A stretch of 64,000 nucleotides of DNA, taken from the NCBI GenBank assembly GCA_963971425.1, contig OZ020519.1, positions 21,535,397 through 21,599,396 of the forward strand, read 5' to 3'. Position 1 is the stretch's first letter. Each line of letters starts with the position of its first letter. The position numbers and the translations under genes were made by a program. The notes below the pieces were generated by a model. The model was not told where the DNA came from. It saw only the letters and a program-made list of their open reading frames with translations, and made no database searches. Shown piece after piece: positions 36,429 through 60,079 of the stretch. The DNA comes from Bryoerythrophyllum caledonicum (lineage: Eukaryota; Streptophyta; Bryopsida; Pottiales; Pottiaceae).

Positions 36429-37979
36429 CTCCGGTGATAACGCTAAACAAGCTAAGACGTTATTGTGTCTAGCAGTACTTACAACAAGAGAGATGTTTAA
36501 TCAAAATGTCTGCAATGATTTGAGGAATTTCATTTGACCTGGATTTTGAAGAAGATTCAAAGGGAAAAGTGCAAGAAGCAACTTCTTCAAAAGAGAAGTC
36601 TTCACCTTCGATTGACCTGGACCCACTGCGCAAGTTACGTATACCATATCATCAGGTTAAAGAGTGATTGCCTGGATTTTGCCAAAACTCTTCCTTAACA
36701 CCGATGTATGCTTCTCCATGTCATGGCATATGGCAACGGTGAAGATTAAGTGTCTCTTTAGGGATTGATAGTATAGTTTTATTGTTAGTATAGCCTAAGG
36801 GGGGCCTAGTTAGGACTTAAAGTCACTTAATAGGGCTGAATTAACACTAGGCGAGTTTGGAAGTGTGAAAGGGGTTATTTCAAGACTAGTTTGGGGTGGT
36901 TGTAACCCCAAGCCGCCCATGTCACCTTCATTCTTGTCAAGTTCAGATTTGGGTGTAGAAGAGAGAGTTGGAAGGATGTGTGGCTTGGAGGCTTGTTGAA
37001 AATTGGCGGTTTGCCATGTAATACAAAGCTTAGTCGCGGTTTCTTCTCTTTCTTCACTTTTCTGGACTAATTCTATAGGAATAGAGTAAGAAGAAGGGAT
37101 GTGATCTTCATTACTTGACAAGAATCTAGTTTGATTTAGTTGTTGGAATTTAGTGCGAAAGACGACGTTGCGGATGTACGGAGGACTGTAGATGTTGTAG
37201 AAACACGGCGGAGGTGCTGCGGAGGCGTGGCGACAACGACATCAACAACAATTGGAGCGGCAGCAAAGACAATGGAGCGTCAGAGGTTTTCGGAGCGGTT
37301 GTATTAGGGAGCGGTTGTTTTTGGAGGTATTTTGGAGTTGTTGTCGGCGTTGCAACGTTGATAGAGGAAATTTTGGGAGAGACGAAGTTGACTTTGGAGG
37401 TAAGGGTGACTAGACCGGAAGTTGACTACAGAGATAAGGGTGACTAGACCGGATAAGTGACGGGCAATAGTAACTGGGTAATTATTGTCGGGTAACTGAG
37501 CAATTATTGCGAGGGTAAATAGTGACTAAGTAATTACTGTCGGGTAATAGTAACTGGTAATTACTGTCTGATAACTAGGCAATTACTGTGAGGGTAAATA
37601 GTAACTAAGTTACTATGACAGTAATTAGTAAAAAGATAACAAAGTAACCGGGGGCCAGAAAAAGTAGGGCTCGAAGGCGGAAGGCATTCCGAGCTTCCGA
37701 GCTACCGAGTTACCGAGTTCTGCGGGCTACGCGGGCTACGCGGGCTTCGCGAGGCGAAGCCATGAGAATCTAGGAAATTTCGACCTAGTTGTTCCCTTGG
37801 TCACCCATCCAAGTCCTATTCCTCCCCCATCCCACTTAACCTCAAGGTTCTCAACAACCTATAACCGGCTTCTACTAGCCGTGGTGATGTTCAAGACTTA
37901 GAAGTGAATAACTTTCTACTCATTGCTCCATTTCAAGAACGGTTTGTTGCATGCACATCAAGCTATGATATTTTATTAG
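36429..37979. other. Non-coding region upstream of the Ty3 element
   Basis: No gene seen. Bases about 37440-37640 repeat TAATTACTGTCGGGTAA-type words, and 37690-37760 contain short tandem GCGGGCTAC and GAGTTACC units. A 5' LTR for the Ty3 element is expected here, but I find no copy of the candidate 3' LTR start (TGTGGAATTC, 53809), so its boundary stays open. Confidence 0.4.
37440..37640. repeat. Irregular tandem repeat rich in TAATTACTG
   Basis: Repeated units of about 30-60 bp built from GGGTAA, AATTATTG, AATTACTG and TAGTAACT words. Confidence 0.6.
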
Positions 37980-38255
37980 TTGATGGTACAAACACGTAAG
38001 AAAGACTACGGGTCACCAAAGTATTCATCGATATCCGATAAGGTATATTTGGAGGACATCGACGACGAAGAACTTGAAGAGGGTGCACATACGCCCCTCT
38101 TTGCGGTTGATCCACCTAAACCTTGGGGGTTTAGTGCCTTTGAGGACATCGATGACCACAGTGGTGGATCCATGGTTCGAGATTGATACTCAGGGAGAGC
38201 TGAAGGCATAGCCTTCAACGACTGGAAGACCAGATTTCGATCATAGCAAAGAACA
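37980..38255 (+). CDS. Ty3 element gag, N-terminal piece
   Basis: ATG at 37980 or 37983 opens a frame reading MVQTRKKDYGSPKYSSISDK and an acidic stretch (YLEDIDDEELEEGAHTP), ending at a stop at 38186. Coding sense appears to continue into MKQRNPLFNDWWAIEQL at 38256 in another register, so a small lesion probably separates the two. Confidence 0.5.
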
Positions 38256-39095
38256 ATGAAGCAACGTAATCCATTGTTTAATGATTGGTGGGCCATTGAG
38301 CAATTACCAAACCATTTGGAGTTTGAGGCATTGCAAGCATATGATGCGTGGTTTGAAGACCACATGAAAGATCTTGATGTTGTTGAGGACTACTGGACGC
38401 GACGCGTGGAGTTGGTTACAACATTGAAGGAGGGTGCTGCTATCCCTGCAGCTAGAGCATTGGATGATGATGATGGTGATGATGAGGAAGTCTCGACAAG
38501 TAGAGATGCAGCGCGGATAGCAAGGCTTCAAGCTGCTACAGCCAGGGCTCGTAGGGCTAGAGAGAGCGCCGCCTCAGGGACAACAATCACATTCATATCT
38601 AGATTGTCCAGAGCATCCACAGAGGCCATAGACACTATTGGACCTCCGCCTAACTTTGATCCGTTGGTAGTATTCTTTGAACACCTGGAAGTTGAGTTTG
38701 GTGGGATAAGACGTGATCGTTTGCGCCACATTCAGGATTTCAAGAAAGAAGTTGGAGATACTCCAAGGATCATGTATGCATGCCTTGCAAGGTTTGCTCG
38801 TGAAAGTAGAGATGCATTTACAGAGCAGCAATTGGTGGAGCTTTACATGAGAAAACAAGACAAGAAGATCCGAGAGATGACACATCCTCATATGCTATTG
38901 ATGTATGGAGGTCGAGCTACCTTAGCTCAAGCATTTGCAATAGTAGAACAATTTGACCGAGGGTTGTGCGTGGAAGAAGCTGGAAGGTTATCATCCATTA
39001 TGACAACAACAACAAGTCAACTTAAGGCTACTACCGGAGGTCAAAGCAAGGGCCATGCAAATTCAAAGCCACCTAAGCAAGTTGCAATGGCGTAG
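38256..39095 (+). CDS. Ty3 element gag capsid region
   Basis: About 279 codons. After an acidic-Arg region (DDDDGDDEEVSTSRDAARIA) comes FDPLVVFFEHLEVEFGGIRR, YACLARFARESRDAFTEQQL, VELYMRKQDKKIREMTHPHM and AFAIVEQFDRGLCVEEAGRL, the helical pattern of Ty3/gypsy capsids. The frame ends in QVAMA at 39095. The zinc-knuckle part follows one frame back (minus one), so a frameshift, genuine or mutational, lies near 39090. Confidence 0.75.
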   Translation: MKQRNPLFNDWWAIEQLPNHLEFEALQAYDAWFEDHMKDLDVVEDYWTRRVELVTTLKEGAAIPAARALDDDDGDDEEVSTSRDAARIARLQAATARARRARESAASGTTITFISRLSRASTEAIDTIGPPPNFDPLVVFFEHLEVEFGGIRRDRLRHIQDFKKEVGDTPRIMYACLARFARESRDAFTEQQLVELYMRKQDKKIREMTHPHMLLMYGGRATLAQAFAIVEQFDRGLCVEEAGRLSSIMTTTTSQLKATTGGQSKGHANSKPPKQVAMA

Positions 39096-39949
39096 AAGAG
39101 GCAACACCTGTAAATTCTCGTATAAGGTGTTGGGGATGTGGAGAATTGGGCCATAGCAAGAAGGATTGCCCAAAGCCTTCTGATAGTGTAGGTGGTGCAA
39201 GTGGAAGTAAAGGTAAAGCAGCTGACAAGGGTCAACAAAGGAAGACACAAAGTCAAGGCAAGCCTGCCAACTCTCCTCCTAAATGCTCTCATCCTGCTTG
39301 TAGACGGATAAGGCATACTGAGGCTCAATGTTGGATTAAAAATCCACAGTTGAGACCTCAATCTTTTCAACCACAAGGGAGTGGATCAACCTCCGGAACT
39401 AACAGTTTAGAGGCACGTATGGGTGAATTGCAAAATAGCTTGGCGTTGTTGCTTGCAGCAACAACTAAACAAGCATCTGCAACCTCCAAATCAAGACCGG
39501 CACATAGTGCCTCTCTACAACTAGGGTATGATAGATTTGAGTATGGAATCCAAGGAGAGTTGATGGCAGCTGCAACAACAAGGTCACACTTGAAGATACC
39601 ATCACAGGCATCAAATATACTTCAAGATCCCGTATTGATTGATAATGAGCTTGGTGCACGCCACAAAGGACCTGTGGATAATATTGGACAATCACGATTG
39701 CCCTTGACATTTGGTCTTGCAGATGTGGCAACCAAATCACTTCACAATCAAAGTCCCAATGTGGACAAGATATCTTTGGAGGAGGATATGGTCAAGAAAT
39801 TGGCGCTTAAGGTATTAGAGATCCCATTGTTTTCTGGCATGCAAGTGCAGAGTTTGAACTTTGATGCAGCTATGGTCTATTATATGGCTGGAAAGATAAT
39901 GCAAGGGAAAGTGCAATTACCTGCGAATGTGGCTATGAAGGAAACATAA
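39096..39949 (+). CDS. Ty3 element zinc-knuckle region and linker
   Basis: CWGCGELGHSKKDC at about 39126-39167 is a classical CX2CX4HX4C knuckle of nucleocapsid. A second, variant knuckle CSHPACRRIRHTEAQC follows at about 39284-39331. Downstream is a Gln/Ser/Thr-rich linker and a helical segment (KISLEEDMVKKLALKVLEIP, LNFDAAMVYYMAGKIMQGK). A TAA at 39947 and a TAG at 40026 interrupt the path to the protease in the same frame. Confidence 0.75.
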
Positions 39950-40051
39950 GAGGCTATTGCGACTAAAGATATAGAAGGTGAAAGGAAACAAGCTGTTTCT
40001 CAGGCAATTGATGCACTCATGCACTAGAAGGATTGGAAGAAGGAACCTCCT

Positions 40052-40771
40052 TTGGCAGTAGAGTTTGATAGCGGCCTAGATTTGAATGAGAACCATCTTG
40101 ATTTGGGAGATGATATGAAGGTTGCTACAAGCTACTTGGCTAATATTCCAGCCAGGGCAACTCGTGAGCGCTTACAGATGAAGCCAGGGGTGGTTAAATT
40201 GGCCAATTCAAGCCATGTATTTTCTGTGGCTAGATGTAATGGTTTTAAGGTGTACCCACTAAAGGTTTTATTTGATACAGGGGCTCAACCAATTATGTTG
40301 GAAAAGAACCTAACAGAGAGCCTAGGTATTAAAGCAGGAGACCTTGATCCATGTCCTTTTACAATTGCAACATCTCTTGGGGGCATAGAACATCCAACAG
40401 GGCTCACAAAAGAACCTTTAAGGCTACAATTCAAGGTGGGCAACGATGCATATACTCACATATCTGTAAGATGTGTGATCACGGGTGCCACCACTTATGA
40501 TATACTTTTAGAGCGACATGCATTGTACGCCATTGGTTTTGGTCACGATTGTTGGACTGAGGAGGCATGGTTTAGACCGGGTTGGTTTCAAAGAGATGGA
40601 AGGAAGGATATACTCCGTGTTACCTTTAATGCCAGTGCAGAAATAGTACATGGACAAGTAGCAATGTATGGATGCGTTGCCAAGTGGTTTCCATTTGGTG
40701 ATTTGCTACTTGAGGGAAATATGTCTTCATTGGATTCACCTTCACATTCAGACATGCAAGTGCCAACTTAA
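40052..40771 (+). CDS. Ty3 element retropepsin protease
   Basis: An aspartic protease segment with VLFDTGAQPIMLEKNL (catalytic DTG at about 40270) and a downstream hydrophobic block, TTYDILLERHALYAIGFGHD, that matches the second conserved region. Same frame as the zinc-knuckle ORF, so gag-pol readthrough was probably continuous before the two stops. It releases gag and pol products in the particle. The ORF ends with TAA at 40769, after which the frame continues toward the methyltransferase. Confidence 0.85.
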   Translation: MAVEFDSGLDLNENHLDLGDDMKVATSYLANIPARATRERLQMKPGVVKLANSSHVFSVARCNGFKVYPLKVLFDTGAQPIMLEKNLTESLGIKAGDLDPCPFTIATSLGGIEHPTGLTKEPLRLQFKVGNDAYTHISVRCVITGATTYDILLERHALYAIGFGHDCWTEEAWFRPGWFQRDGRKDILRVTFNASAEIVHGQVAMYGCVAKWFPFGDLLLEGNMSSLDSPSHSDMQVPT

Positions 40772-40904
40772 TTGAGCAAGTTTGTTAGGCATCCAAAGGA
40801 TCCAACGCCACCTTGGACTTCAACAAAAGGCTTGATGGATCAATGCCAAGAATTGGTGAAAAAGATTGATCAACACCTTTGGGAGCCAAAATATACAAGG
40901 CCTC

Positions 40905-41855
40905 TTCTGTAGAAGCTTGTGGAGCTTCACAAAGAGGCTGGGGGCATAATTCTTGTAGAACTATTTGCTGGATTTGGTACAGGATTGGCTGCTGTTTTAG
41001 AAGCTAGATTATCTATACAAAGTTATACATATGTAGATAATAATGCCATTGTCAGCACAATAGCAAAACATCATCTTCAACACTTGTAGATGAGATATCC
41101 AACGCAATTACCCGCAAGTGCTATACAAGGTTGTATGTCACGATTATCATCGGACATTGCTTTGATTGGCTAAGAGAATCTTGAAAGGTTAGGAAGAGTG
41201 GACCTTGTGATGGCTGAATGGGCCAGATCAAAGCCTCCAAGACCCTTGATCTGCTCTATTTTGGGAGCTATTGCGGTTGTTGAAGTGGTGGCAACGCTTT
41301 CAAGCCACTCCTGTGGCCTATATCTTTGAGAATGTCCCACCATTGGAGGTGGTCAATGCACAATTGCGAAATGCTGCAGCAGAGATGTGCTTACATCTTG
41401 GAAAACGAGTACTAGTGGATGTAGCAGCTCTTGGTTCTTATGCACATCGATTGCGGTGGAAATGGACAAATTTGGCTTCTGCACCTGGTATTTCGGCAAC
41501 ATTGAGGCAACTTACACGTCTACAAGGGAGGCATGTTGACCACATTTTAGATGTTGGTCGCTTTTCTCAACAAGTGGTGCAGGTTGATTCAGCCCCATTT
41601 GCCTTGATAAATAATGTAGGGGAGCCTCGTTTGGCTTTGCCTACATTCATGAGTTATCCTCGATCATTCGCATTTCGTGAAGGAGGACCAGGCTTAGTAT
41701 TTGATACTAGCACACAAAGTCTTCGTGAGCCTTGTGTTGATGAACGGGAGAGAGCCATGGGGTTTCTTACAGGTACAATAGCTGGCCCTGGAATTACAGA
41801 GTCTCAACGCCGTCACATCCTTGGACAAGCCATGGATTTAAACTCCATGACTTGA
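40905..41855 (+). pseudogene. DNA cytosine-C5 methyltransferase domain inside the Ty3 element
   Basis: Motif I is clear: IILVELFAGFGTGLAAVLEA (about 40949-41010). Motif IV begins VDLVMAEW (about 41198), but the expected Pro-Cys-Gln loop is missing, and a frame change occurs there. After it, SLQDP, a TGA at 41247-41249 and SALFWELLRLLKWW follow. The motif VI equivalent is YIFENVPP (about 41318-41341), the motif VIII equivalent is ALGSYAHRLRWKWTN, and the motif X equivalent is RRHILGQAMDLNSM near 41850. This motif set and order define C5-methyltransferases of the Dnmt3/DRM-like general type. Stops at 40910, about 41088 and about 41174 add to the damage. The enzyme would methylate element or host DNA in intact copies (inference). 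This copy cannot be catalytic because the Cys loop is gone. Confidence 0.85.
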
Positions 41856-42362
41856 TTTCTAGGGGTTTGTCTAGCAGCTTAAGTGCATCAAAATGGTGGC
41901 TAGGAAGGACATCTGGGGGCAGAGTCTTCAAGCCAAGGGACACATGGTAAAATGACACCTCATGATATTTCAAAAGAGGTTCATCCAGATGCAGAGGTGT
42001 GGCAGGAAAGTAAGCAAGTCTGGGATACAACCCTTAGAGGAATGAAGACACGGGATGGAGGTGCCTTTGAATGGGTTGTAGAAGATGAACTACGAGGTCA
42101 AAGGGTCTTGGCAGCATTGGCCCAAGAATTGGGTAAGGAGAATGCCAAGGAAGTTTTAGCAAGGTATTTTTTGTAAAGAAAGCACCTCTTTTGGCTCATG
42201 TTCATGATAAAAAGATAGCATCTATTGCCTTGGAAAAGGGCAATAGTGCATCTTCATCCAACTAGCAACTAGGAGTGCCAGCATCTATATTAGAGTCTTT
42301 AGGAAAGAATGTAATCTTGCCAGTTCAGAAGGATTGGGAGATGGACATAGGGATGGGACTCA
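41856..42362 (+). CDS. Linker between methyltransferase and reverse transcriptase
   Basis: An open piece at 41952-42176 reads MTPHDISKEVHPDAEVWQES, VWDTTLRGMKTRDGGAFEWV and GKENAKEVLARYFL. Further coding sense (ILESLGKNVILPVQKDWEMD) leads to the GMGL codons at the transposon insertion point. On the far side the reverse transcriptase frame starts again with GMGLTGAEARKV. No domain recognised. Confidence 0.5.
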
Positions 42363-42440
42363 ACGAGGCTAGGGTGTGAGCCATGAGCCATGAGCCATGA
42401 GCCATGAGTGGAGATTTCATGAGCGGTGAGTTGTGATTTA
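42363..42440. repeat. Left terminal inverted repeat with GAGCCAT array
   Basis: CTAGGG at 42369 is followed by four tandem GAGCCAT heptamers (42378-42406) and degenerate units (GAGCGGTGAG). It is the inverted partner of 50414-50481. Confidence 0.85.
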
Positions 42441-42999
42441 TCAAAAATAGGTTTATTTTTCTAAAAATAATGTTATTTGTGTGAGAAAAAATTCTGATTA
42501 AAATATTTTTAATAAATTTTAAGTGCCTATAACCGTGCAATTAGAATAGACTACAATATTTCATGTCCAATTGCAATCAAATTCAAGTAGTGTTGGGTCT
42601 TCCTATTTCGCAAAGTTGAAGGTGTATTGGAGAGATTGTAGGCACTACGAGTTTAGGACCTAGAGAGGATTTTTATACATACGATGCTCTTATTTTGTGT
42701 ATGTATAGTATATATAACGATGGTAGATAATTAAGTTGGTGAAGTATTTTAAAAGTGATGGAGACACAAGTGAAGTAGATGCGGATAGGACAACAAAATC
42801 AACTATAATATAAGAATAAAAAAATCTTTCTATTTTATAACAAATAAGAGGTACATTATCCATATACTAACAACATTCAGCAACAATCCATATGAGTTGA
42901 GCTATAAATGGTATTGATTCATATAGCAATGTCCCTACTTTTGAAGCTACACATCATATAAGCTCCAAGACACCACTGTCCACCACTTTCTTAATCTCG

Positions 43000-43430
43000 T
43001 TGAAGCTTAAGGTAGCAGCATGGATAAAAGCATTGTCCTCAAAATCAAGCTTGCATACCACTCAAAAAATATAGAAGAGATGCTTGCAATGGTACCAAAC
43101 ACCTCTCTTCTTGGATTGAACCACCATGTCCTTGAAGTCGCCGCAAGAGCAATTTGGGAGAGGGCCTATAGTAAGGCGATATTCACTCGTCTTCTGTCCC
43201 TTCTTTGACTGTAGTACAATGATGCATCTGAGGGCGGAGTAGAGAAGCATTGAGATGGAGTTGATGCGGACGTTGAGGTTGTCCGCTGATGCCCATCAAT
43301 TTTTTGTTTAATGAAAACATTTGCCTAACAACGGATACGTCAACCTTCATGCAATGTTGGATAAGAGTCTGTAGCTGCAGGTGCAGGCACAGATGCAACT
43401 TGCACAGTAGGATTGATAGCATCTCCAAAG
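43000..43430 (-). pseudogene. Fragments downstream of the transposase-like gene
   Basis: Short pieces on the minus strand (43428-43183 and 43250-43062) contain QPQRPHQLHLN and SKKRGVWYHCKHLFYIF. They may be the C-terminal end of the transposase-like gene at 44-45 kb, but frames are broken and no motif is recognised. Confidence 0.3.
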
Positions 43431-44084
43431 AGCCGCCTTGGTGACACTTTCCGTCGCTCTTTAAGTTAAAATCCTGCCTCTTCTAGCCTGAGAATCTCAG
43501 CCTTGGCAAGGTTGGTGCCCTTCATCACAGGCCATACATCTGGAACAAGCGGACGGTGATTCACCCACTTCCGCTTTGTTCCCTTACGCACCTTTCAATG
43601 TCATCCAGGCAATGGAAGAACTTGGTAACTTGGTCCTTCAAGAGTCTTCGAAGATGGAGGAGCCTGGTGTATGTAGGAGCAGGAGTGTTTTTTTCCAAAC
43701 GTACAATCTTCTCGATGCACATCTTACCCGTCCTGGCCTGTTTAGCATGTCAACACTTACCGGGAGTCTTCGGGAGCCTTGTAATATGCCATTTATGTAT
43801 GTCACGTCACTTAGATTCTTGAACATTCGTAACATGCATTACTCCCGTAGGTGCTTTAGATGGAGACAACAGTGAGGATACAAGCTTCACATCATCTAAA
43901 GATGAAAATGGGGAGGTTGGAGGCAATGTTATCGCTGGTGAAGAATTTTCTTGGCGTCCCTTCCTGGACCTTGTAGAGGCCTTCGGACAGGAGAAATTTA
44001 TATATCAGGGCGATGACTATCAGGGTTATATATGGTTGTTTGGACTATAAATTGAAATGAAATTACAATCAAATATGATACAAC

Positions 44085-44987
44085 TCATACCAATTCCATA
44101 GATGCTCCCCATTGGCGGTAGCGGTTATGCCAATAGGCAAGCCACTGGTCAAGTTGTCCAAGGGCCTCATCATTTTGGGCACCATAAGTTTGCCACCAAG
44201 CTCTAATGACAAGGTAACAAATCGCAGAGTCTGCCAAATTCTTGGCATCCTTATATTGCTTGCCCACAAGACGGTGCTGGTCTTGGAACTCGCTCTTGAT
44301 ATTCTTGTTCGTGTGGCGGTTCATGGATGTTGTCCAATGAAGTAGACATGTGCGTTCTCGATCTACCATAACCTCTTGGGGATTACCTCAACCATAGACC
44401 GTCCGTACAACATTCCAATTTTGTCATGCGCTATCCGCCATAAAACCTTTGAAATTGACGTTGTCAACCCCGTGCGTCCCTATAACTTCGTTGATGTTCC
44501 TCCACATGATGCATTAGGCTGAATTTGTGTCTTCAGATTGCATGTCGTAAACTGTAATAGTCATAACTCTGCAATACCGAGGGTCGTACACATTGCAACC
44601 CATGGTGGTCCAATTCCTGACCCGCTTTACATGATCAAATATGATCCATGTGTCTTGTAGGTCTCCACCAGGCTGCATATGCAAAACTAGATCGACTCCT
44701 GAACCAGGGCCAATCTTGCACATCTTAAAGACAAATTTTTTTTCCTTGTCGCCTCCTTGACACGGAAACATGTTGCGCTGGATAAATGGCCAAGTCGTAC
44801 AATCTCTCATTTTGCCGATACCGTCCATGGCGCTTGTACGTCCGACTTGCTTGAAGGATGAAATGGTATTTTCAACATTTGGAGATGCCAAGTTAGTATA
44901 CTTCTCCATCACGTCCTTCATATCTTCCATAGTCATAGTCATTTGAATTGGATGGAATTCTAGGATTGAAATGCACACCGATACCAT
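44085..44987 (-). pseudogene. Transposase-like protein of the 8.1 kb transposon
   Basis: Two pieces on the minus strand. The first (44987-44514) has FVFKMCKIGPGSGVDLVLHM, DTWIIFDHVKRVRNWTTMGC and YCRVMTITVYDMQSEDTNSA. The second (44369-44085) has RTCLLHWTTSMNRHTNKNIK, EFQDQHRLVGKQYKDAKNLA and VIRAWWQTYGAQNDEALGQL, ending in WLSFWH-like FRYRQWG residues. I recognise the blocks VMTI.V.DMQSED and CL.HW..S.DRHT as a family repeated in many non-seed plant and algal genomes and believed to be transposase-derived (MULE-like). The Asp after VMTITVY and one in the intervening lost region would be catalytic candidates. Frameshift and missing sequence between the pieces (about 44370-44513) show decay. 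Confidence 0.6.
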
Positions 44988-45469
44988 TTTGTTATGTTGT
45001 AGCTGAGCTCAATTAGTGGAGCGGCGTCAATGGCAATGGCTAAAGACACGGTTGCAAAAGGATCTGAGGTGCCTCTTCATGACCTGACCAAGCTGATTTG
45101 AGATTTTGTTTATGACCATGATTGCTTGGATTTAATAGGTCTCAGTGCCGAGACAATCATTTTGGTCGAAATTGTATTCAGAGATTGTCTTCAAAATTTG
45201 CGTCGTTGTTGCCTATTTTGGATGTTTGGATTAGTTCATCATGATCCCTTAGTCTGTTGTTCTCGATTACCTTCTTATACTCGCGGCTCATGTTGTTTTT
45301 CTCCTTGGATGTTAATAGATTTGATGTTTGAAGTCAATGTGTTAGTTTACAATCTTTGCAATTTTTAGATGTTAACTTTGAGGGTCTCCGGGCCAAGACA
45401 CTCTTTCTCTTGAAATTTTTTTAAGAACATTAAATTTTGACCCCTAAAGAACCATGTGTGACTTGGAAG

Positions 45470-45960
45470 GACAATATAGATTTTTGGCACGTTCCTAAAT
45501 TTTGATTTATTTTTATTTCTAGCTTGTCCTTGATAACAACAGTATGTGATGAGAACCTTCAGATTGGCCGTTTGGATTATTGTTCTTGAGTGTTTAAAGT
45601 TCACAAAGGAATATAACGTGAAATGGCAATTTTTGTATCTCCACTCCATGAACACTTGTTTCCTCCATGCTACACCCCTTCTCTACCTCTAAAAATTGGT
45701 GTATTCTCTACCTCTAAAAATTGGTGTATGCTCAAGATAATGGTTATAGATTTATACCTTGTGTATTGCAAAGTGAAATATATGAATGCTATACCTCTCA
45801 ACGCAAAGAAAAAATGAACCTATTTCTTGACTTCAAACACTATAATCTTTTAATCTGTGCGGTCAATGTTTATGAAATTTTTAGAGTACATTATTTCAAA
45901 AGTCTTAATTGAGATCCTACGGTCAAAAACATAAACATAAGGTTTTGTTTCCATCCTAAC
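45470..45960 (+). repeat. Dispersed repeat R1 inside the transposon
   Basis: About 490 bp with TATAACGTGAA, CCTCTAAAAATTGGTGTAT and TTGAGATCCTACGGT words, homologous to 54390-54860. Part of it (CTCTACCTCTAAAAATTGGT) is locally duplicated near 45690. Non-coding. Confidence 0.65.
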
Positions 45961-47325
45961 TTATTGCACTAAAACCAACAATTTTGAAGTGTGTTTAATG
46001 TGAATTGTCACAATCCTTTAGGGGTTAATCAAATGACCAAGTATATTGATATTGATATTGGTGATCACTTCCATGGATCTTAGTGGCGAGACGTTCTTTT
46101 TTGTCAAAATTTTTTAGAGAGATTGTCATAGAATCTTGTTAGAAACCTTCTTGATTTTAGCTCTTGAATGATCATTACAAGGTGTCTTGGTGCCGAGATC
46201 ATTTGATTTCTATGAATTATTTTGTGGTAGGTCCTAGTCATTTATTTTCAACCTTGATGATTTCAAATTCTTAGAGCTCAATATGAGGTGTCTCAGTGCC
46301 CAGATCATTTTATTATTATGAATTATTTTGTGGTGGGTCCTAGTAATTTGTTGTCACTTTTGATGATTTCAAATTCTTAGAGCTCAATATGAAGTGTCTC
46401 GGTGCCGAGACCCTAATTTGTACAAGAAATTATTGTGAACTCCATATGCATTGGTCACTTTTGGAAACCACATGACAAATTATTTATTTTTCCTTAGAAT
46501 GTGTTACGTCTACAGTGGAAATTACCGAGGCATTGCACGGGTGTCACCAGGGTATTACATAGGTATTACATATACAAATCACGTAACTTTCATCAAACCT
46601 TGGGGCAATAACATTGGTAAAATTCAGCTATACATAAACCGACGTTACAATACCGTAGTATATGATGATAAGTGTATAGTGCAATACGAAAAGCTCACAG
46701 TATAATTCGACGATATAATACGTATATCTGAATTTTACTGCCTAGGTGATTGCCATCCACAGTGGAAAATCACCGAGGCATTGCCGTCCAAAGTATCTCT
46801 GAATAATACCAGAGAATGATACAAGTTGTTGTTCAATAGTCCATATTCTCGTCCAATCGTCATACTCTTGTCCAACCTAACAGTTCTCGTCCAACTTTAT
46901 CACGTTTATGAACCTCAACACCTCCTGCTGGAATCACCGCATTCAATTTTGACAAACTCAATGATCTCAAATTGTGTGTACTCCGTTGCACCAGGGCAGA
47001 GTGGTGACTTTCAATCATGAATCGAAGTTGCGGACTTATGCTTACATTGTTTAGAAGGTCTCGGTTATATTGGTGACAGCCCCTTACTATCTCGGTGCCG
47101 AGGTACGTTGATACAGAAGGGATTGATCTTCGTGGGTTGTCGTGACTGTGTTGGTGACGATCTTCATAGTGCCGAGGTACATTGATAGAGGTGGTATCGA
47201 TCTCCGTGGGTTGTTGTGACTTTGTTAGTGACGATCTTTGTGGGTCGTCGTGACTCGGTTGGTGACGGTCCTTTACTATCTCGGTGCCGAGGTACTTTCA
47301 AAACAGGTTTTAGATAACTCTAGTA

Positions 47326-47567
47326 CAAAAGTGGGAAAAAAAAACCGCCCTACATTTTTTGGAATGTTTGGGTGTGCAATATACTGTTGGAAGCGAATTT
47401 TCAAGACCTTTCCAATGGTGTATTACACTCTCAAAACTTCTAAAAACTGAAGAAGTTATGAGCAAAAAACCGCGGCAGCCCAAACCATGAACAACGTAAC
47501 AAAATTCTGGCAGCATGGTCAAAAGAACGGCAACATGAAAATGAATGCGGTTTTTTTTCCACTTTTG
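47326..47567. mobile_element. 242 bp MITE with TA flanks
   Basis: Begins CAAAAGTGGGAAAAAAAAAC and ends with the near-exact inverse (GGTTTTTTTTCCACTTTTG). Each end is flanked by TA (47324-47325 and 47568-47569). Size, inverted ends and TA flanks fit a Tc1/mariner-type MITE nested inside the 8.1 kb transposon. Confidence 0.7.
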
Positions 47568-47675
47568 TATTAGTGTAAGTGTGTATGGAGAGGTTGGATC
47601 GGAAGCGACGCAACGCCGAGCCACATCAGTCTTCAGCACTTTAGTTGTCACCGAGATCTATAGTTTGGATCGAGT

Positions 47676-49560
47676 TTGATGCGGTGTTGTGAAGAGCACT
47701 TTTGTACTGTCTCGGTGCCAAGACCCTTGTTCAGATCAAAACAGCCGCGCGAACTACGGCCGCGTATATTGGATGCCCCCGAAGTTGCTACGGCACTGAT
47801 AACAACTCAGAAAGGGAATAGAAAGGCAACAACGACAACAAAGGGAACATATTCAACAACAACATCAAAGGCTACAAAGGCAACAAAGTCATCCAAGTCA
47901 TCCAAGGCATCTGAAGCTTCAAAGGTAACTCAGACTTCTATTGCAACTATTATTCATGTGGATGGCAGTCGGGTGATTGCATCACCTAATTTATTGAATT
48001 TGGTAAATTCATCAATTCTTTCTTAGGCCACCAATGCCAACCAAGTTTATCATACCAATATTCAGGCCAAGAAAAATGTCAATGCTACGTGTATTGCTTC
48101 TTCCTCTATGGTCTCTTCAACAAAAATTCTTATTGAAAATACTTCAATTTTCACATTGATGGAATCTGGGAGCAATCATCCTCTTGTGAAGAAGATGCAT
48201 AATTTCGTTCTAACAGTATGTAGCATCACTCATAATCATTTACATTGCTATAACTAGTACTTAATTTGTTATAATTTTCTGGAGTGATTTATTGCCTTCT
48301 TAAGAGTGATAAATTTTTGGAGTGGTTAATTGATGTTTATTATATTTTATATGTGTAGGTTCGAAAGGGTCGAGGAACTTAGGTGCGTTCTGCATTGTGT
48401 CCTCATGATGGATTTGATCTCATCATTATTGATATTCCCGAAGGTTTACCGGTTCCAAAGATTTCATCTCTTATAAATGACATTCCGCAGTGAAATACAT
48501 ATAATGTGTCTGAATTGGAAGCTATCTTTGAATTCGCTCATTACTATTTGCAAAGTCACGCATCTTTACTTATCTTTATGCCTGAATCAATGACCATTCG
48601 AGCAGACGTACGTACATATGCAAAGACTTATGACTTCAAAATCATCAAAGCTTGGTGGGGCATCAATGAGCTCCAATTGACATCTCCAACAAACTAGTCA
48701 ATGTTGGTGTGTTTCCCTATCTCTACTCTTTCTGTGTTATTTTCCCACTTATTTATTTTAACAACAAGATTGTTTTTGGGTAGACATGACGTTTTTGCAT
48801 CTTCCTTTTTGTTCATGATTCGCATCAAGTTCTCAGTTCTCCTTTCAACAAGATTAACCACTGTTGGATGGCAATACCAACCTTGGCAAGGATGATGTTC
48901 TCTTCAACTTTGTATCAGTAGCATCACAACTCATGAATGGAATTGTTCCTTGGAGAGGAGGCCGGGAGAAAGATCCAATTTTATTGCAAATTCTTATTCA
49001 AGTTCTAACCAAGTCAAGTGGTGTCATTCTTGATGCCTATGCTTCTACAGGTAATTTTGATACGTTTGATGTTTAAATCCTTGATGATATAGAGTTTCAT
49101 TAATATTTTCCTTTTAAATTTAGGAGCCTCGATTCATGCTTGCTACTGCTTAAGTCGCCATTTGGTTGCTTTTGAAGCGGATCCTGCTATTTTTGAAGCC
49201 ATCCTCGCACCACTTCAAGAGGCGCCACCATTGGTAGAGATTGTTGTGTCTTTGCAAGTGGATATTGACTTGGAGAGGGATGACATTCATGTCCGTCATG
49301 TTGCAAAACAAAACCATTTGAGTGAGTAAGTTGTGAATTATTATTTTCTTGCATTCTGTTAAATATTTTAAAGTTGAGCGTTGACATTATTGTTTGAATC
49401 ATTGTAGATTGATGGCGGACGCCGAATCACCTCCTAAACTGTTTCTACTTCCTTCGCACATAGAAGACTTAGCTCAATTATTAGCTACTTTACCATCTCC
49501 TAGTCCATTGTATGGGACTTGTTATTATGACCCTCGTATTGTTTAGTTTGTGGACATTGA
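47676..49560 (+). pseudogene. Amino (N4/N6) DNA methyltransferase-like gene with introns
   Basis: Exon 1 (47676-48215) is Lys/Ser/Thr-rich and ends HPLVKKMHNFVLT at a GTATGT donor. Exon 2 (from 48359) has CPHDGFDLIIIDIPEGLPVP, then IPQ, a TGA (48491), and NTYNVSELEAIFEF and ASLLIFMPESM. Exon 3 (about 48864-49050) has KDPILLQILIQVLTKSSGV and ILDAYASTG. Exon 4 (49124-49325) continues ASIHACYCLSRHLVAFEADP. Exon 5 (about 49408) has PPKLFLLPSHIEDLAQLLA. The FDLIIIDIPEG block occupies the place of the DPPY/W motif, and DAYASTGAS...GFEADP matches the S-adenosylmethionine motif (DPFAGSGTT...GIEID). That motif order is the beta-class arrangement. The catalytic tetrapeptide is altered (DIPE) and stops occur, so this copy is probably dead. 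Confidence 0.6.
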
Positions 49561-50413
49561 AGCAATTGAGGCTAGCAAGGATAGTAATGATAGTTTTAAT
49601 TCTACTTTCTAATTTTGCTATATTCATGTACTTCATTTCAAAACTTTCTTTGTTCACTTTGTACGTGTCTTTTACATTGCAGTGTTCCTTTCATATTTAG
49701 TACTTAGTTTCATGTTCTTATTGTCTTCCTAACTTGTAACTTGTATTATTTATATTATCCATTTTATTTTCTATACTTTAATTTTTCAATAGATATTAGC
49801 ATAGCTTGTGAAAGATAAATAGAAAATATCATAATTTAAAATAAAAAATAAATTACATGATTAGTTTGTGAACTCTAGAGAGCATTCTATTAGTATCAAA
49901 TTTCATAGACTCTAGAAATACTACAGTTAATATAGACGTAAATCAAAGCATTTCAAATTTATACCAATTATTGTCTTTTAAAAAATGATATAGGTTAGAG
50001 AAAAATAGATAATTTCATGAACGTAACAAAAAACAATTTGGAAGAATAAACAATAATGAATAATTAATTTTTTTGTCAAATTGATTTATATAATAAAAGG
50101 CAAGGCCATAATAGAAAAAATAAGTAACAAGTATATTCAAAAATATAAGAATGAAATGGTAAAAACATATATCACAACACCTTATAATTGATAGCACTAA
50201 AAGGAGTTGTCAAAATACGGGGACCAATGTGAGACTAAAATGAGAATAGATACTAACACAATGAAATTAGAAGCATATTTACACGGATATAGGCATTACA
50301 TCATATATAGGTCGTACAAATTTTCCACGGATATAGACTTTCATACTGCTTTTTTCCACGGTTCTCCGATCATATACAAAAAAAAATAGAATATTTTTTT
50401 GTGACTATCACTG
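49561..50413. other. AT-rich right flank of the transposon interior
   Basis: No gene seen. The stretch is strongly AT-rich and leads into the right terminal repeat. Confidence 0.5.
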
Positions 50414-50481
50414 CTCATAGCTCACCGCTCACGGCTCACCGCTCATGGCTCATGGCTCATAGCTCATGCCCTAGCAATCAT
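50414..50481. repeat. Right terminal inverted repeat with ATGGCTC array
   Basis: Tandem GCTCAYSGCTC-type heptamers, the inverse of the left GAGCCAT array, end in CCCTAG at 50474 and AATCAT before the 13 bp direct repeat. Confidence 0.85.
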
Positions 50482-51948
50482 GGGATGGGACTCACAGGTG
50501 CAGAGGCACGGAAGGTGCGAGCTTTCATTCGCTCGTACAAGGCCTGCTTTGCTTTCAAGCTCACTGATTTAGAGGGCTATAAGGGCAAGCCAGTAAGAAT
50601 ACAATTGGAAGACGATTATCCAATATTTAGACGTCCATATAAGTTGAGTATTTCTGAGAGAGATGGGGTCAAACTGCGATTCAAGGAGTTGTTTCATGCA
50701 CGTTTGGTGGAGCTCTCAGATGGTGAATATGCATGTGCAACAGTCATGCCAGCAAAGGATATTCTTGGAAATTGGACGGAGAAGCGTATGTGTGGAGACT
50801 ACCGGCTAGTTAACAAGAAGACCAAATCGGATCGCTACCCTATGCCTACACCTGAGGAGTTATTTGATGCAGTTGGAAAAGCAAGAGTCTTTAGTACTTT
50901 GGACTTGAGGTCAGGATACCACCAATTGCCATTGAGAAAAGAAGATCGGGTGAATACAACATTTTTGGGAGTAGATGATGATGGAAGAGATATGCTCTTT
51001 CATTGGAAGTTTTTACCTTTTGGATTAAAAAATGCTCCAGCGGAATTTCAACGTGTGATGGATCAGGTCTTAAAGGGTTTGCCATTTGCTCGGTGTTACA
51101 TAGATGATGTTATTATCTTTAGTGATACACCACAAGAGCATGTAAAACATTTGCAGCAAGTATTTGAAAGGCTGCAACAATGGGGTCTTCGCTTGCATCA
51201 TGGAAAGTGCAGGTTCTTTCATGATCAATTACCTTATTTGGGTCATATGATTACGCCAGGAGGTTTAGGTGTACAGCAAGCAAAGGTTGAAGCCTTAAAT
51301 AGAATTCCAATTCCTAGAGATGTGTCAAGGTTGAGAGCTTTCATGGGTTTAGCAAACTATTACCGTCGATTTGTTCGTGGTTTTAGTCTTTTGGCTAAAC
51401 CTTTGACTCTATTGACACGCTCTGATCAAGAATGGATGTGGGGCCCTGCTCAAGAAGAAGCATTTGAGGCCTTGAAAGGAGCACTAGGTTCAGCACCAGT
51501 GTTGAGGAGGCCAGATGCAAGACGGCCATTCCAACTCCATACATATTGGAGTATGTTGGGAATTGGTGTTATTTTAACTCAAAAAGATGATGATGGAAAG
51601 GAGTATGTCATTGCATATGCTTCTCGAAGTAACAATGATGCAGATGCCAAGTATTCATCCTATGAAGGAGAATATCTTGCGGTAGTATGGGCTGTGGCGC
51701 ATTTTCGTCTATACCTTTATGGGCAAAGCTTCACACTTGTGACTGACCATCAACCTCTGAAGTGGTTGATGGAATCAGACAAGCTTACAGGGAAGTTAGT
51801 CAGGTGGGCATTATTATTGCGAGAATATGATTTTGAAGTAGTCCATAAGGTAGGGTTGCAAAATTTGGATGGAGATGGCTTAAGCCGTAATCCAAGCCCA
51901 TTGCAAGAGGACTTGACCGGTGCTAGGTGGCACGGTACTTCTGACTAA
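50482..51948 (+). CDS. Ty3 element reverse transcriptase and RNase H
   Basis: A continuous frame of almost 490 codons. Reverse transcriptase motifs in order: VRIQLEDDYPIFRRPYKLS, MCGDYRLVNKKT, VFSTLDLRSGYHQLPL (first catalytic Asp), FLPFGLKNAPAEFQRVMDQ, YIDDVIIFSD (the Tyr-x-Asp-Asp box), LPYLGHMITPGGLG and LRAFMGLANYYRRFVRGF. RNase H follows: LHTYWSMLGIGVILTQ, SSYEGEYLAVVWAVAHF, TLVTDHQPLKWLM and NLDGDGLSRNP. In Ty3/gypsy RNase H the first motif normally has Asp where this copy has Tyr (51544-51546), so RNase H is probably inactive. The catalytic Asps of reverse transcriptase are intact. It converts element RNA to DNA inside the particle. The stop at 51946 separates it from integrase. Confidence 0.92.
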   Translation, partial: GMGLTGAEARKVRAFIRSYKACFAFKLTDLEGYKGKPVRIQLEDDYPIFRRPYKLSISERDGVKLRFKELFHARLVELSDGEYACATVMPAKDILGNWTEKRMCGDYRLVNKKTKSDRYPMPTPEELFDAVGKARVFSTLDLRSGYHQLPLRKEDRVNTTFLGVDDDGRDMLFHWKFLPFGLKNAPAEFQRVMDQVLKGLPFARCYIDDVIIFSDTPQEHVKHLQQVFERLQQWGLRLHHGKCRFFHDQLPYLGHMITPGGLGVQQAKVEALNRIPIPRDVSRLRAFMGLANYYRRFVRGFSLLAKPLTLLTRSDQEWMWGPAQEEAFEALKGALGSAPVLRRPDARRPFQLHTYWSMLGIGVILTQKDDDGKEYVIAYASRSNNDADAKYSSYEGEYLAVVWAVAHFRLYLYGQSFTLVTDHQPLKWLMESDKLTGKLVRWALLLREYDFEVVHKVGLQNLDGDGLSRNPSPLQEDLTGARWHGTSD

Positions 51949-51981
51949 GAGGCAGTTCCAGGTTGGCATGCTTCAACTTAT

Positions 51982-53527
51982 TTGGCATGGATGGAAGGGA
52001 AATCTGGCCAAACTATTGAAGAAGCTTTGGGAAATGTTGAGGATGAACAATTAGATGAAAAGGGATCCAGAATCACCGCTGATGTGTGGCGAGATGAAGG
52101 GATTTTGTATCGTCTACAACATGGGGGGTTTCTTCCTAATACCACACCTCAAGAGCGGGACCGGATAGCTCATAGAGTGGCTAGATTTCATTGGGAGGGT
52201 GGACTTATATTTCGGAGATGGCAAGATGGAACACGGAGGGTAGTTCCTAGGCCAGAACAACGTCTTCAGTTGATACAACAAATGCATGAAGAGTTGGGAC
52301 ATTTTGGAGTACGATGCACACTCAATGTTGCGTGGTCAATATTGGTGGATGGGCATGCAACAAGAGGTGGCGACCTATGTGGGGAGGTGTGAAGTTTGCG
52401 ATCGGGTTAGATCAAGCTTCAATACCTTGTCTCCCCAACTACAACCATTACCAATTATGGGATTGGGCTATAGGTGGAGTCTTGATTTTGTTGGACCATT
52501 GATGACCACAAAACGAGGTGCTAAGTATGTATTTGTTATGGTAGAGCATTTCAGCAAGTGGATTGAGCTGGTGGCTTTACCACAAAATTCCTCTGAGCTA
52601 GCAGCGGCGGCATTCCTAGATCGAGTTCTAGCTAGATTTGGAGCCCCTGCAGAGGTGTTGACAGACCAAGGAAGGGAGTTCCTTGGGTCTTTTGAAGAGC
52701 TTTGCACTAAAGCTCTAATTAATAATCGAACAACTTCTAGAGATCACCCAGAGGCAGATGGATTGGCAGAGAGAGTGGTTCAGACAGTCAAACGTGGATT
52801 GCCCAAATATGGATTGCAAGCAGGCAATTATGGAGATTGGGACCTCAAGCTACCGTGGATAGCGATGGATTATCGCTTCAGTCGGCAAGCTTCTCTGGCA
52901 TGTTATAGTCCTTATCAGCTACTCTATGGCAGAGAGCCAGTATTGCCTTCGGTAGTAAGAGAGAAACTAAATCCTGTTGTGGACTTGGATGATCCGAAAA
53001 TTTGGGCACAAGTGTTTCAAGATCGTGCTGAGTATTTTCAGAGGGCCATGCTTATGGCTATGGAGAACTTGGCAGTAGCGCAACATAGAGATAAGTTGCG
53101 TTATGCACGTATTAGGAGTGGGCCTTACAAACCTCAGCTTCGACGTTTTCAAGTGGGCGATTACGTATATTTACAACGTGAGGCACCCACGACCTTGGAT
53201 GTTCAAGCAGGTAGAACCATCTTGCTGGTCAAGGAGATCTTGCCAAGTGGGGTCCTTCTTTTAGAAAGAAAAGATGGACAAGAATGCAGGGACAATACCA
53301 AGAATTGTGCACCTTGTCATTTGCCTATTGAAGGATCAATACATCAAGACATGGCGGTGGTTCCAGCTGGATATAGATGTTTTGTTTGTGGAGAAACCAA
53401 GGGCGCAGCAACTATGTTGTTATGTGACCAATGTCAGAGAGGGTGGCATATGGCATGTCTTCGTCCTCCTCTGGCAATACTTCCTGAAGGAGATTGGAGT
53501 TGCCCACGGTGTAAGAAATCAAGGTAA
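51982..53527 (+). CDS. Ty3 element integrase with C-terminal PHD finger
   Basis: The zinc-binding HHCC part begins in the first frame (QMHEELGHFGVRCTLN) and continues one frame on (QYWWMGMQQEVATYVGRCEV) after a shift at about 52300-52390. The catalytic core has all three acidic residues: YRWSLDFVGPL, VLTDQGREFLGSF and HPEADGLAERVVQTVK. The C-terminal part (RFQVGDYVYLQREAPTTLDV) is the usual SH3-like end, followed by the PHD finger. Integrase inserts the element DNA into the genome. Only the frameshift and the upstream TAA (51946) damage this part. Confidence 0.9.
53374..53524 (+). CDS. PHD finger at the integrase C-terminus
   Basis: CFVCGETKGAATMLLCDQCQ, then RGWHMACLRPPLAILPEGDW and SCPRC give the full Cys4-His-Cys3 signature of a PHD finger, with the usual Trp-His and the Trp before the last Cys pair. 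PHD fingers read the histone H3 tail, so a role in steering integration to certain chromatin is plausible, like the chromodomain of chromoviruses (inference). It is encoded in frame with integrase. Confidence 0.88.
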
Positions 53528-53625
53528 TCCTATGTTACATGGATGAAGTGAGAATGTACCATCATCAAGAGTACCGCTAAGTTGAAAGTAGAGTCTAACC
53601 ACAAAAATGGCGTTGGAAGCGAATG

Positions 53626-53652
53626 ACGATGGGGCTCAATTGTACCCAGCTA
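53626..53652 (+). other. Conserved motif downstream of the integrase stop
   Basis: ACGATGGGGCTCAATTG followed by TACCCAGCTA. It closely resembles the motif after the gag stop of the gag-only elements (12268-12296, 15276-15302). Confidence 0.55.
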
Positions 53653-53798
53653 ACCCCTCTCTTTACAACTTGGTTTGAAGATTCAAATGGACTATTATCA
53701 ACTTCATGTTTGTTATAGTATATTTTGTAGATAGTTATTTACTTCACTAGCTATGTTTTCTTTTGCTAGCTGAGTTGCGAGGGCACTATACTCAGCTA

Positions 53799-53818
53799 GG
53801 GGGGCAATTGTGGAATTC
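53799..53818 (+). other. Possible polypurine tract and 3' LTR start
   Basis: A GGGGGG run (53799-53804), CAAT, then TGTGGAATTC. A purine run immediately before a TG is the usual junction of internal region and 3' LTR. No matching 5' LTR start was found, so this is tentative. Confidence 0.35.
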
Positions 53819-54129
53819 TACATGGTTGCCTTGTATTGTGTGGATTTGGTGATAGTTACATATTATATATGCTTATGATAGGGTAGCTCTTATGAGACTT
53901 GCATAGATCATGAGTATATGTAGTAGTGAAGTGGCTATACGACACATACTATTGATGACATGAAGAGATACGACATCCAGCTCAAAGGAATAATCCGTCA
54001 CCCACAAGAAGGCGCTCGACTCATCCACGTCCACAATCCACCAAGCGTGGCTCTCCCAGATTCCGTCAATTTTTGGTGGTGTCATAACGCTACACTCAAA
54101 AACCTTGTATATCATTACAAAATGGTAGT

Positions 54130-54860
54130 CACTATTAGTATGGAATAAAAAAATTTGAACCTCCACTCATTGCACAATTTTTTTGAATATGCTACTCTTT
54201 TTCTACCTCTAAAAACTTTTGCACTACACAAGATCTAAATCCAATACCATCGTGTTAAGCATGATGTTAGTTCTTTGGTAAAATAGCATATTAATCCAAG
54301 TCAATCATTTTCACACATTGTCACACATTTTCAACCAAGGTACCAAAAACTCTTCTACCTTTCCACATAAAACTTTGAGATCTTTGTATGATTTGATTTT
54401 GATTTTTTCTATGGCATTACGTGATGGAAACCTTCTAATTGACCATTTGGATTCTCATTTAAAACAGTATCAAGTTCACAAAAAAATATAACGTGAATTG
54501 AGAATTTTTGGACCCCTACTCATTGTACAATTTTTTTGAATATGCTACACTCCTTTTCTCCCTCTAAAAATTGGTGTATAACTAACTAACATCATCCTTA
54601 ACATTATGGTTATCAATTGAGACCTTTTATAGTGCAAAAATTGGACACCAATTGAAGTCAAAGTCTGCTAATCCAGAAAATGCAGGGAAGAAAATGAGCC
54701 TTTTCACTACTTCAAACATTATAATCTTTCAATCCGTGCGGTCAAATTTTATGAAATTTTGTGTGTATGTTACTTAATAAGTCATAATTGAGATCCTACG
54801 GTTTAAACTACAAAAAAAGTTTATTTTTTCTTCCATGCTAATTGCAGTAGAACATGCATT
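54130..54860 (+). repeat. Dispersed repeat R1, two adjoining copies
   Basis: Blocks at about 54130-54260 and 54480-54600 share CACTCATTG, AATTTTTTTGAATATGCTAC and CCTCTAAAAA. The second runs on to AATTGAGATCCTACGGTTT and matches 45470-45960. Non-coding. Confidence 0.65.
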
Positions 54861-60076: not shown

Positions 60077-60079
60077 CTG

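What the first reader, a model, noticed from the sequence alone, without database searches (positions are those of the whole stretch)
37980..53820. Ty3/gypsy retrotransposon encoding its own DNA cytosine methyltransferase and a PHD finger
Seen: gag, CCHC knuckles, DTG protease, a C5-methyltransferase with motifs I, VI, VIII and X, reverse transcriptase, RNase H, DDE integrase and a Cys4-His-Cys3 PHD finger on one strand in one element. Known: retrotransposon-borne C5-methyltransferases were described in dinoflagellates and the charophyte Klebsormidium. A combination with an integrase-linked PHD finger would pair a writer of DNA methylation with a reader of histone marks in one mobile element. 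Inference: the element may steer integration to chosen chromatin and methylate itself to limit damage or detection.
Basis: partly seen in the sequence, partly recalled or inferred. Interest (0 to 1): 0.9.

Follow-up and report, generated by a model that had tools for sequence, protein, structure and literature searches.

The report
Jumping gene carrying DNA-methylating enzyme
This is an old, broken copy of an abundant plant retrotransposon family whose members carry their own DNA-methylating enzyme and a histone-reading finger, and whose layout suggests that they insert from a DNA circle.

Summary
The window copy is dead: four frame breaks, in-frame stops, the methyltransferase's catalytic motif IV lost, an 8.1-kb nested insertion. 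Its true bounds are 36719-53975 (TG...CA ends, 4-bp duplication TCCA). DNMT is DNMT3-class and under purifying selection (dN/dS 0.04 between subgroups). Named relatives: Marchantia, Riccia, Sphagnum, Closterium, Volvox; the published Klebsormidium Dnmt3-gypsy is the closest known kind. What appears new: (1) DNMT lies upstream of an in-frame UAG in the CARYYA readthrough context (UAG 20/20, CARYYA 19/20), so it should be made at Gag level; (2) the likely primer site pairs with the element's own 5' region, with compensating differences in three subfamilies; (3) the repeats A-body-B-GC-A-B read as a two-LTR cDNA circle opened at a palindrome inside the LTR by a DDE integrase; (4) relatives carry DNMT at a second place, between RNase H and integrase. 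Self-methylation, readthrough, circle integration and chromatin targeting are inferred, not shown.

The parts
36715..36718 (.). left copy of the 4-bp target-site duplication TCCA
36719..37112 (+). terminal segment A1 (starts TGTCATGG); right limit approximate
   Evidence: homology with two other subfamily-C copies, end motif
36930..36942 (+). site inside A complementary to the primer-like site (ATTCTTGTCAAGT)
37113..37125 (+). primer-like site directly after A (ACTTGACAAGAAT), complementary to 36930-36942
   Evidence: 13 nt perfect complement; a 12-nt one at this place in 2 of 2000 shuffles
37983..39089 (+). gag, broken (stops at 38184 and 38244, frame break at the end)
   Evidence: tblastn to P0103, stops
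39125..39175 (+). CCHC zinc knuckle
   Evidence: Pfam PF00098 2.1e-4
40232..40372 (+). aspartyl protease core (DTG)
   Evidence: Pfam PF13650 4.4e-4
40950..41870 (+). C5 DNA methyltransferase, DNMT3-class, dead in this copy (motif IV lost, stops, frame break near 41220); limits approximate
42263..42265 (+). ORF1 stop UAG in readthrough context UAG-CAA-CUA
42363..50481 (.). nested 8.1-kb insertion, not part of the family; flanked by GGGATGGGACTCA (42350-42362 and 50482-50494), inverted arms GCTAGGG...
50482..51945 (+). reverse transcriptase and RNase H (ORF2)
   Evidence: Pfam PF00078 8.2e-32, PF17917 4.7e-34
52234..53280 (+). integrase (H2C2 zinc finger and DDE core), frame break near 52318; limits approximate
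   Evidence: Pfam PF17921, PF00665
53378..53512 (+). PHD finger, C-terminal to the integrase in the same frame
   Evidence: Pfam PF00628 1.4e-10; PDB kin
53797..53805 (+). polypurine tract before B (TAGGGGGGC)
   Evidence: read; same place in L018
53806..53975 (+). terminal segment B (ends ATACGACA); no A2-B2 follows in this copy
53976..53979 (.). right copy of the target-site duplication TCCA

Best explanation
The window holds a dead copy of an abundant Ty3/gypsy-class retrotransposon family that encodes Gag-protease-DNMT and then, after a leaky UAG, RT-RNase H-integrase-PHD. SHOWN by sequence: conserved domain order, copy number, purifying selection on DNMT and PHD, the UAG-CARYYA junction, TG...CA ends with 4-bp duplications, the repeat layout, the complementary primer-like pair. 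INFERRED: most ribosomes stop at the UAG, so DNMT is made and packaged at Gag level while RT and integrase-PHD come from readthrough. Reverse transcription is primed by the RNA's own 5' region. By the rule that an LTR ends before the primer site and begins after the polypurine tract, the LTR is B-GC-A. The cDNA closes into circles with one or more LTRs, and the DDE integrase cuts the palindrome ACGACA-GC-TGTC inside the LTR, giving A-body-B-GC-A-B (two LTRs) or A-body-B (one LTR). DNMT methylates this cDNA. The PHD, most like fingers that read unmodified H3K4, guides insertion to chromatin without H3K4 methylation, where a premethylated copy does least harm.
For: Linkage: DNMT 20/20 and PHD 17/20 in an RT-picked sample. 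UAG 20/20, CARYYA 19/20; 18/20 in the DNMT-picked set; CAATAGCAACCAAGG 234 times in the genome, reversed control 0. dN/dS between A subgroups: DNMT 0.040, RT-RNase H 0.021, integrase 0.025, PHD 0.12, linker behind DNMT 0.36. DNMT3 class by sequence and fold. Long form with duplications 3 of 3; short form with duplications 4 of 5; junction CACGACAGCTGTCANG 190 times, control 0. Primer pair in three subfamilies with compensating differences.
Against: No expression, methylation or readthrough data. L026 (CAG) and L013 are open across the junction. The short form, and the extra unit of L016, could come from recombination between B copies instead of circles; C642 has no matching duplication. A tRNA primer was not excluded. 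The published Klebsormidium DNMT gave no detectable methylation in yeast, which its authors call inconclusive. Some relatives lack a recognised PHD. Selection within subgroups looks weaker (DNMT dN/dS 0.14 and 0.16, PHD 0.38; few changes).
Confidence: 0.6

Rival explanations
1. Same element, but DNMT acts on the host genome rather than on the element's own cDNA: made in Gag-like amounts, it alters host methylation, for instance to silence competing elements or to saturate the host's marking of foreign DNA.
For: Gag-level expression predicted by the UAG position would supply more enzyme than cDNA marking needs; de Mendoza et al. discuss host-wide effects in Symbiodinium (section 11).
Against: DNMT sits in a polyprotein that should be packaged; K. 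nitens, with a related element, has a methylome like that of land plants.
Confidence: 0.2
2. The catalytic domain is kept for nucleic-acid binding (cDNA, RNA or chaperone role), not for methylation.
For: The published Klebsormidium DNMT showed no detectable activity in yeast, called inconclusive there.
Against: Motif IV PCQ is kept in 20 of 20 fetched copies and motif X in 20 of 20; PCQ and ENV are kept across distant relatives; dN/dS 0.04.
Confidence: 0.12
3. Integration uses linear cDNA with ordinary ends; the A-body-B-GC-A-B layout is a by-product of template switching or of recombination between LTR copies, and the short form arises by B1 x B2 recombination.
For: B1-B2 recombination would turn the long into the short form with the same duplication; L016 has an extra unit.
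Against: The permuted layout is standard: 15 of 20 copies; primer-like site and polypurine tract sit at A and B, not at the integrated ends; the GC-spaced palindromic junction is conserved in two 55%-divergent subfamilies.
Confidence: 0.25
4. Chance neighbours: unrelated MTase, gypsy and PHD fragments lie side by side in this window only.
For: The window copy alone is broken and split by 8.1 kb.
Against: Copies with both frames full carry all domains in two consecutive frames; linkage 20 of 20 and 17 of 20 in the RT-picked sample; relatives in other species.
Confidence: 0.01

Closest known systems
KnitGypsy-Dnmt3 of Klebsormidium nitens (de Mendoza et al. 2018, PMC5890265; abstract, sections 9-11 and passages read)
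   Same: Gypsy domain set, intronless Dnmt3-class DNMT, purifying selection on DNMT, repeats in the DIRS-like order A-coding-B-A-B.
   Different: There DNMT is described in the Pol polyprotein ORF; here it ends ORF1, before a UAG. No PHD is mentioned in that main text ('PHD' 0 hits). Figures were not seen and its sequences were not compared. End structure, duplications, priming and readthrough were not found in the passages read.
SymbioDIRS-Dnmt3 of Symbiodinium (same paper, passages)
   Same: Retrotransposon DNMT of the Dnmt3 class, A-coding-B-A-B repeats, more than one domain order.
   Different: Tyrosine recombinase instead of a DDE integrase; dinoflagellate hosts; tested DNMTs were active in yeast.
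Chromoviruses (Ty3/gypsy with an integrase chromodomain; PMC3350952 seen in listing and one search for terms)
   Same: A chromatin-reading module at the C-terminus of a gypsy integrase.
   Different: PHD finger instead of a chromodomain; no chromodomain found by Pfam; DNMT added.
Self-priming LTR elements of the Tf1 kind (recalled; self-priming PBS also named in a passage of PMC6317226)
   Same: Primer site complementary to the element's own 5' region.
   Different: Here the complementary site lies about 150-190 nt upstream in a hairpin (A, B); the RNA start is unknown and the LTR is permuted.
Circle-forming insertion sequences with a DDE transposase, such as IS911 and IS30 (recalled)
   Same: DDE enzyme acting on ends joined with a short spacer.
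   Different: Analogy only; here the circle would be cDNA.

Membership tests
Ty3/gypsy (Metaviridae-like) | polyprotein order protease-RT-RNase H-DDE integrase | tested here: met
   Pfam
Ty3/gypsy (Metaviridae-like) | TG...CA ends and short fixed target duplication | tested here: met
   4-bp duplications in 7 of 8 copies whose both ends were read: L010, L015, L018, window, C836, L012, L026; C642 without
Ty3/gypsy (Metaviridae-like) | two identical full LTRs at the ends of the integrated copy | tested here: not met
   A-body-B-GC-A-B or A-body-B
KnitGypsy-Dnmt3 kind | gypsy domains plus Dnmt3-class DNMT plus A-B-A-B repeats | tested here: met
KnitGypsy-Dnmt3 kind | DNMT inside the Pol ORF | tested here: not met
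   DNMT ends ORF1 before the UAG in 18 of 20 copies; 2 copies are open across
KnitGypsy-Dnmt3 kind | sequence clade with the K. nitens copies | not tested
   no K. nitens sequence was among the proteins returned
DIRS/PAT/Ngaro | tyrosine recombinase | tested here: not met
   rve DDE integrase found, no recombinase family among the Pfam hits
DIRS/PAT/Ngaro | split direct repeats | tested here: met
Chromovirus | integrase chromodomain | tested here: not met
   none in Pfam scans; PHD instead
DNMT3 | motifs in the order I-IV-VI-VIII-X, nearest to DNMT3A/B | tested here: met
   motif order; PDB; Foldseek
DRM | rearranged motif order | tested here: not met
Type I (CARYYA) readthrough | UAG followed by CARYYA between in-frame coding regions | tested here: met
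   19 of 20 RT-picked copies, 18 of 20 DNMT-picked; consensus from PMC5382211 passages
Type I (CARYYA) readthrough | measured readthrough product | not testable with these tools
   -
Self-priming retrotransposons | primer site complementary to own 5' region | tested here: met
   12-13 nt in three subfamilies with compensating differences; use as primer not shown, tRNA primer not excluded

The most novel reading that the evidence does not exclude
A retrotransposon lineage spread through green plants and green algae integrates from circular cDNA with a DDE integrase that cuts a palindromic junction inside its LTR, makes a DNA methyltransferase in Gag-like amounts by a leaky UAG, and so delivers methylated circles to chromatin chosen by an integrase PHD finger; in one branch of relatives the methyltransferase sits instead between RNase H and integrase.
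Probability: 0.33. Interest if true: 0.92.

Novelty: new variant of a known kind. Interest (0 to 1): 0.74.

Why it matters
The role of retrotransposon-borne DNMTs is open. This genome offers many young copies with a conserved UAG, primer pair and junction, so the amount of DNMT (Gag-level), the form of the cDNA (circle or linear) and PHD targeting become directly testable. A DDE integrase working on circular retro-cDNA would blur the usual split between LTR elements (linear cDNA, DDE integrase) and DIRS elements (circle, tyrosine recombinase). It also speaks against a printed statement that DNA-methylase transposons are absent from land plants (PMC6338049, passage seen, cut off after the word 'land'): Marchantia, Riccia and Sphagnum proteins match, several with RT in the same protein.

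Tried and rejected
Chance-neighbour reading: rejected. Ordinary LTR pairs: none in the three copies held with both flanks; the A/B layout instead. A and B repeats inside the window by self-comparison: none, because this copy is the short form. ORF1-ORF2 link by frameshift: rejected, same frame. Viral contigs: one weak DNMT match, L035, not pursued. Structure model of Marchantia P0118: mean pLDDT 58.1, good only in parts; used only to confirm a DNMT3-like fold. Root of the DNMT tree and host origin of the DNMT: not settled; the only outgroup was a DNMT3B fragment on a very long branch, so one capture with a move, or two captures, both remain open. Junction-codon tallies with patterns ACCAAGNNNCAATCACCGG and CAANNNCAACCAAGG did not complete, so 234 exact TAG junctions have only the reversed-pattern control. 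Host not identified; nearest named kin of the window's side of the tree are bryophytes, so 'bryophyte' is a guess. Literature searches showed no report of DNMT plus PHD in a gypsy element; most subscription papers are not held and no bioRxiv library is held.

Full report
What is in the window. Pfam finds CCHC, aspartyl protease, RVT_1, RNase H, H2C2, rve and PHD on the + strand. The DNMT frame has 92 relatives at E<=1e-3. Against P0103 (ORF1) and P0146 (ORF2) the copy reads as pieces in changing frames with in-frame stops, an 8.1-kb insertion at 42363-50481, and no motif IV cysteine (AEWARS for AGWPCQ). Homology to two further copies of the same subfamily, C642 and C836, sets the left end at 36718/36719 and the right end at about 53976; the ends are TGTCATGG at 36719 and ACGACA at 53975, flanked by TCCA.

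The family. The genome has 437 Mb in 894 contigs. PF00145 scored 123 of 1058 candidates, a number of them with open frames over 1300 aa. I took 20, chosen mostly for long frames, hence biased to intact copies. They form subfamilies A (two groups about 24% apart in ORF1 DNA) and B (55% from A); the window belongs to a third, C, and its RT-IN is nearest P0146 (90%). Ten of the 20 have a full second frame of 1041 or 1047 aa. Layout: ORF1 gag-CCHC-protease-DNMT, ORF2 RT-RNase H-integrase-PHD. In this sample the PHD is found in 19 of 20, not in L014. DNMT motifs by pattern: IV and X in 20 of 20, I in 17 (not L011, L014, L015), VI and VIII in 19 (not L028).

The refutation test. A search with the window's own RT scored 143 of 4446 candidates, the window copy first. 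I sampled 20 of the other 142, exactly every seventh row of that listing. DNMT lay directly upstream in 20 of 20; the PHD was in the expected 600 bp in 17 of 20, and the other three (L057, L069, L072) were not followed further. Five of the 20 are C-like and 15 B-like by best DNMT match; one, on C872, is a near-duplicate scaffold of C847 (L028). The sample says nothing about gypsy elements too distant to be scored.

The UAG. In 18 of 20 DNMT-picked copies the two frames are one frame split by TAG; L026 has CAG and L013 is open across the junction. In the RT-picked sample TAG is there in 20 of 20 and TAG-CARYYA in 19 of 20; L078 has TAGTAACTA. The next two codons are CAA-CCA (A), CAA-TCA (B, once CAG-TCA) and CAA-CTA (C and the window): the second amino acid changes while CARYYA stays. 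That is the type I readthrough signal of plant RNA viruses (PMC5382211, passages). CAATAGCAACCAAGG occurs 234 times in the genome, its reversed control 0 times. So DNMT should be made in Gag-like amounts; this is inferred.

Repeats and ends. L010, L015 and L018, held with flanks, read A-body-B-GC-A-B with ends TGTCA...ACGACA and 4-bp duplications CCTC, ATGC, AGCA. Of 20 copies 15 end B-GC-A-B, L016 has a further unit, L012, L017 and L026 end at B, and L014 shows no B end. Short forms carry duplications too: window TCCA, C836 GTTT, L012 AACT, L026 CCGT; C642 shows none, and L017's left end was not reached. CACGACAGCTGTCANG occurs 190 times, control 0. A polypurine tract precedes B and a primer-like site follows A, so by the usual rule the LTR is B-GC-A and the integrated copy is a circle opened inside the LTR. 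Two-LTR and one-LTR circles would give the two forms; B1 x B2 recombination could also turn the long form into the short one, so the short form alone does not prove circles. A-repeat copies of one element are 98.6-100% alike, so some insertions are recent.

Priming. The site after A pairs with a site inside A: 12 nt in subfamily A, 13 in B, 13 in C, including the window (36930-36942 with 37113-37125) and C642 and C836. Sites CTTGAGAAAGAT, ACTTGACAAAGAC and ACTTGACAAGAAT differ from each other, and the partners differ to match. A 12-nt match at this place arose in 2 of 2000 shuffles of the window stretch. In A and B the inner site sits in a stable hairpin (z -4.26, -3.69, -3.15). Use as primer is inferred; tRNAs were not searched.

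Selection. Between the two A groups (L009 against L010) dN/dS is 0.040 for DNMT, 0.021 RT-RNase H, 0.025 integrase, 0.051 gag, 0.18 protease, 0.12 PHD and 0.36 for the linker behind DNMT; several synonymous distances exceed 1, so the values are rough. Within groups the ratios are higher on few changes: DNMT 0.138 (L009-L024) and 0.161 (L027-L018), PHD 0.377.

Kinship. DNMT is nearest DNMT3B/3A in the PDB by sequence (1.3e-8); a predicted model of Marchantia P0118, weak overall, is nearest DNMT3A/3L by Foldseek. Relatives of the DNMT include Marchantia, Riccia, Sphagnum fallax and Closterium. The integrase-PHD search gave 437 proteins, of which 120 are listed. Of these 120, 45 also hold DNMT, 35 show RT next to integrase without DNMT in the same protein (as our ORF2 would), and 40 are too short to tell; 119 have the PHD. 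Volvox reticuliferus P0227 and Marchantia P0170 each hold DNMT, integrase and PHD in one protein; Haematococcus P0148 and Chromochloris P0195 show integrase and PHD only. Of 13 DNMT-picked proteins with a full integrase, 8 have the PHD by profile; P0117 and Closterium P0131, P0132, P0136 do not, and P0143 has a Cys-rich PHD-like tail. DNMT sits before RT (7 tree rows) or between RNase H and integrase (38 rows, 27 of them with RT in the same protein). One branch separates the two in the DNMT tree (100/99), 25 rows of unknown placement and one outgroup not counted; in the RT-IN tree the second type is one clade (SH-aLRT 100). So DNMT and polymerase diverged together, with one move or two captures.

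PHD. The nearest solved fingers are CHD4, PHF12, DPF3, KMT2D, ATXR5, KDM5B/A and PHF21A; several of these read unmodified H3K4 (recalled). Targeting away from H3K4-methylated promoters is my inference.

Comparison and novelty. KnitGypsy-Dnmt3 (PMC5890265: abstract, sections 9-11 and passages read; figures not seen) shares gypsy domains, Dnmt3-class DNMT and the DIRS-like repeat layout, but is described with DNMT in the Pol ORF, and 'PHD' does not occur in its main text. A 2025 paper repeats that DNMT3 is embedded in streptophyte and dinoflagellate retrotransposons (PMC12344493, passages). I therefore file this as a new variant of a known kind: the writer-reader combination, the Gag-side DNMT behind a leaky UAG, the self-complementary primer site and the circle-opening layout with a DDE integrase were not found in print in searches.

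Noticed in passing
window 42363-50481: 8.1-kb insertion inside the element, flanked by a 13-bp repeat GGGATGGGACTCA and inverted arms beginning near GCTAGGG; looks like a DNA transposon, not identified.
   Followed up: partly
L010:617-1255 and L009:614-1252: Subfamily A has a further 213-aa frame (ORF0) before ORF1, conserved in protein while synonymous sites are saturated, without a Pfam match; not seen in subfamily B.
   Followed up: partly
L001 (G000:C14:16016358-16017317): Intact bacterial-type cytosine methyltransferase (TIGR00675, 2e-69) near an IS5-like transposase frame (my reading) on a chromosome-size contig: contamination or transfer.
   Followed up: partly
L016:8698-10000: Extra tandem B-GC-A unit (599 bp, 100% identical) at the 3' end of one copy.
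   Followed up: partly
window 19050-20369: 440-aa frame with DUF7869 (6.9e-42), perhaps part of another mobile element.
   Followed up: no
window 57217-58248 and 62696-63748, - strand: Frames with RNase H (5e-11) and with PCIF1_WW (8.6e-9).
   Followed up: no
window 45540-45951 and 54415-54830: Two direct repeats of 165 and 181 nt, 71-75% alike, one copy inside the nested insertion and one just right of the element.
   Followed up: no
window 60064-60484: Repeat array with an 11-bp spacing.
   Followed up: no
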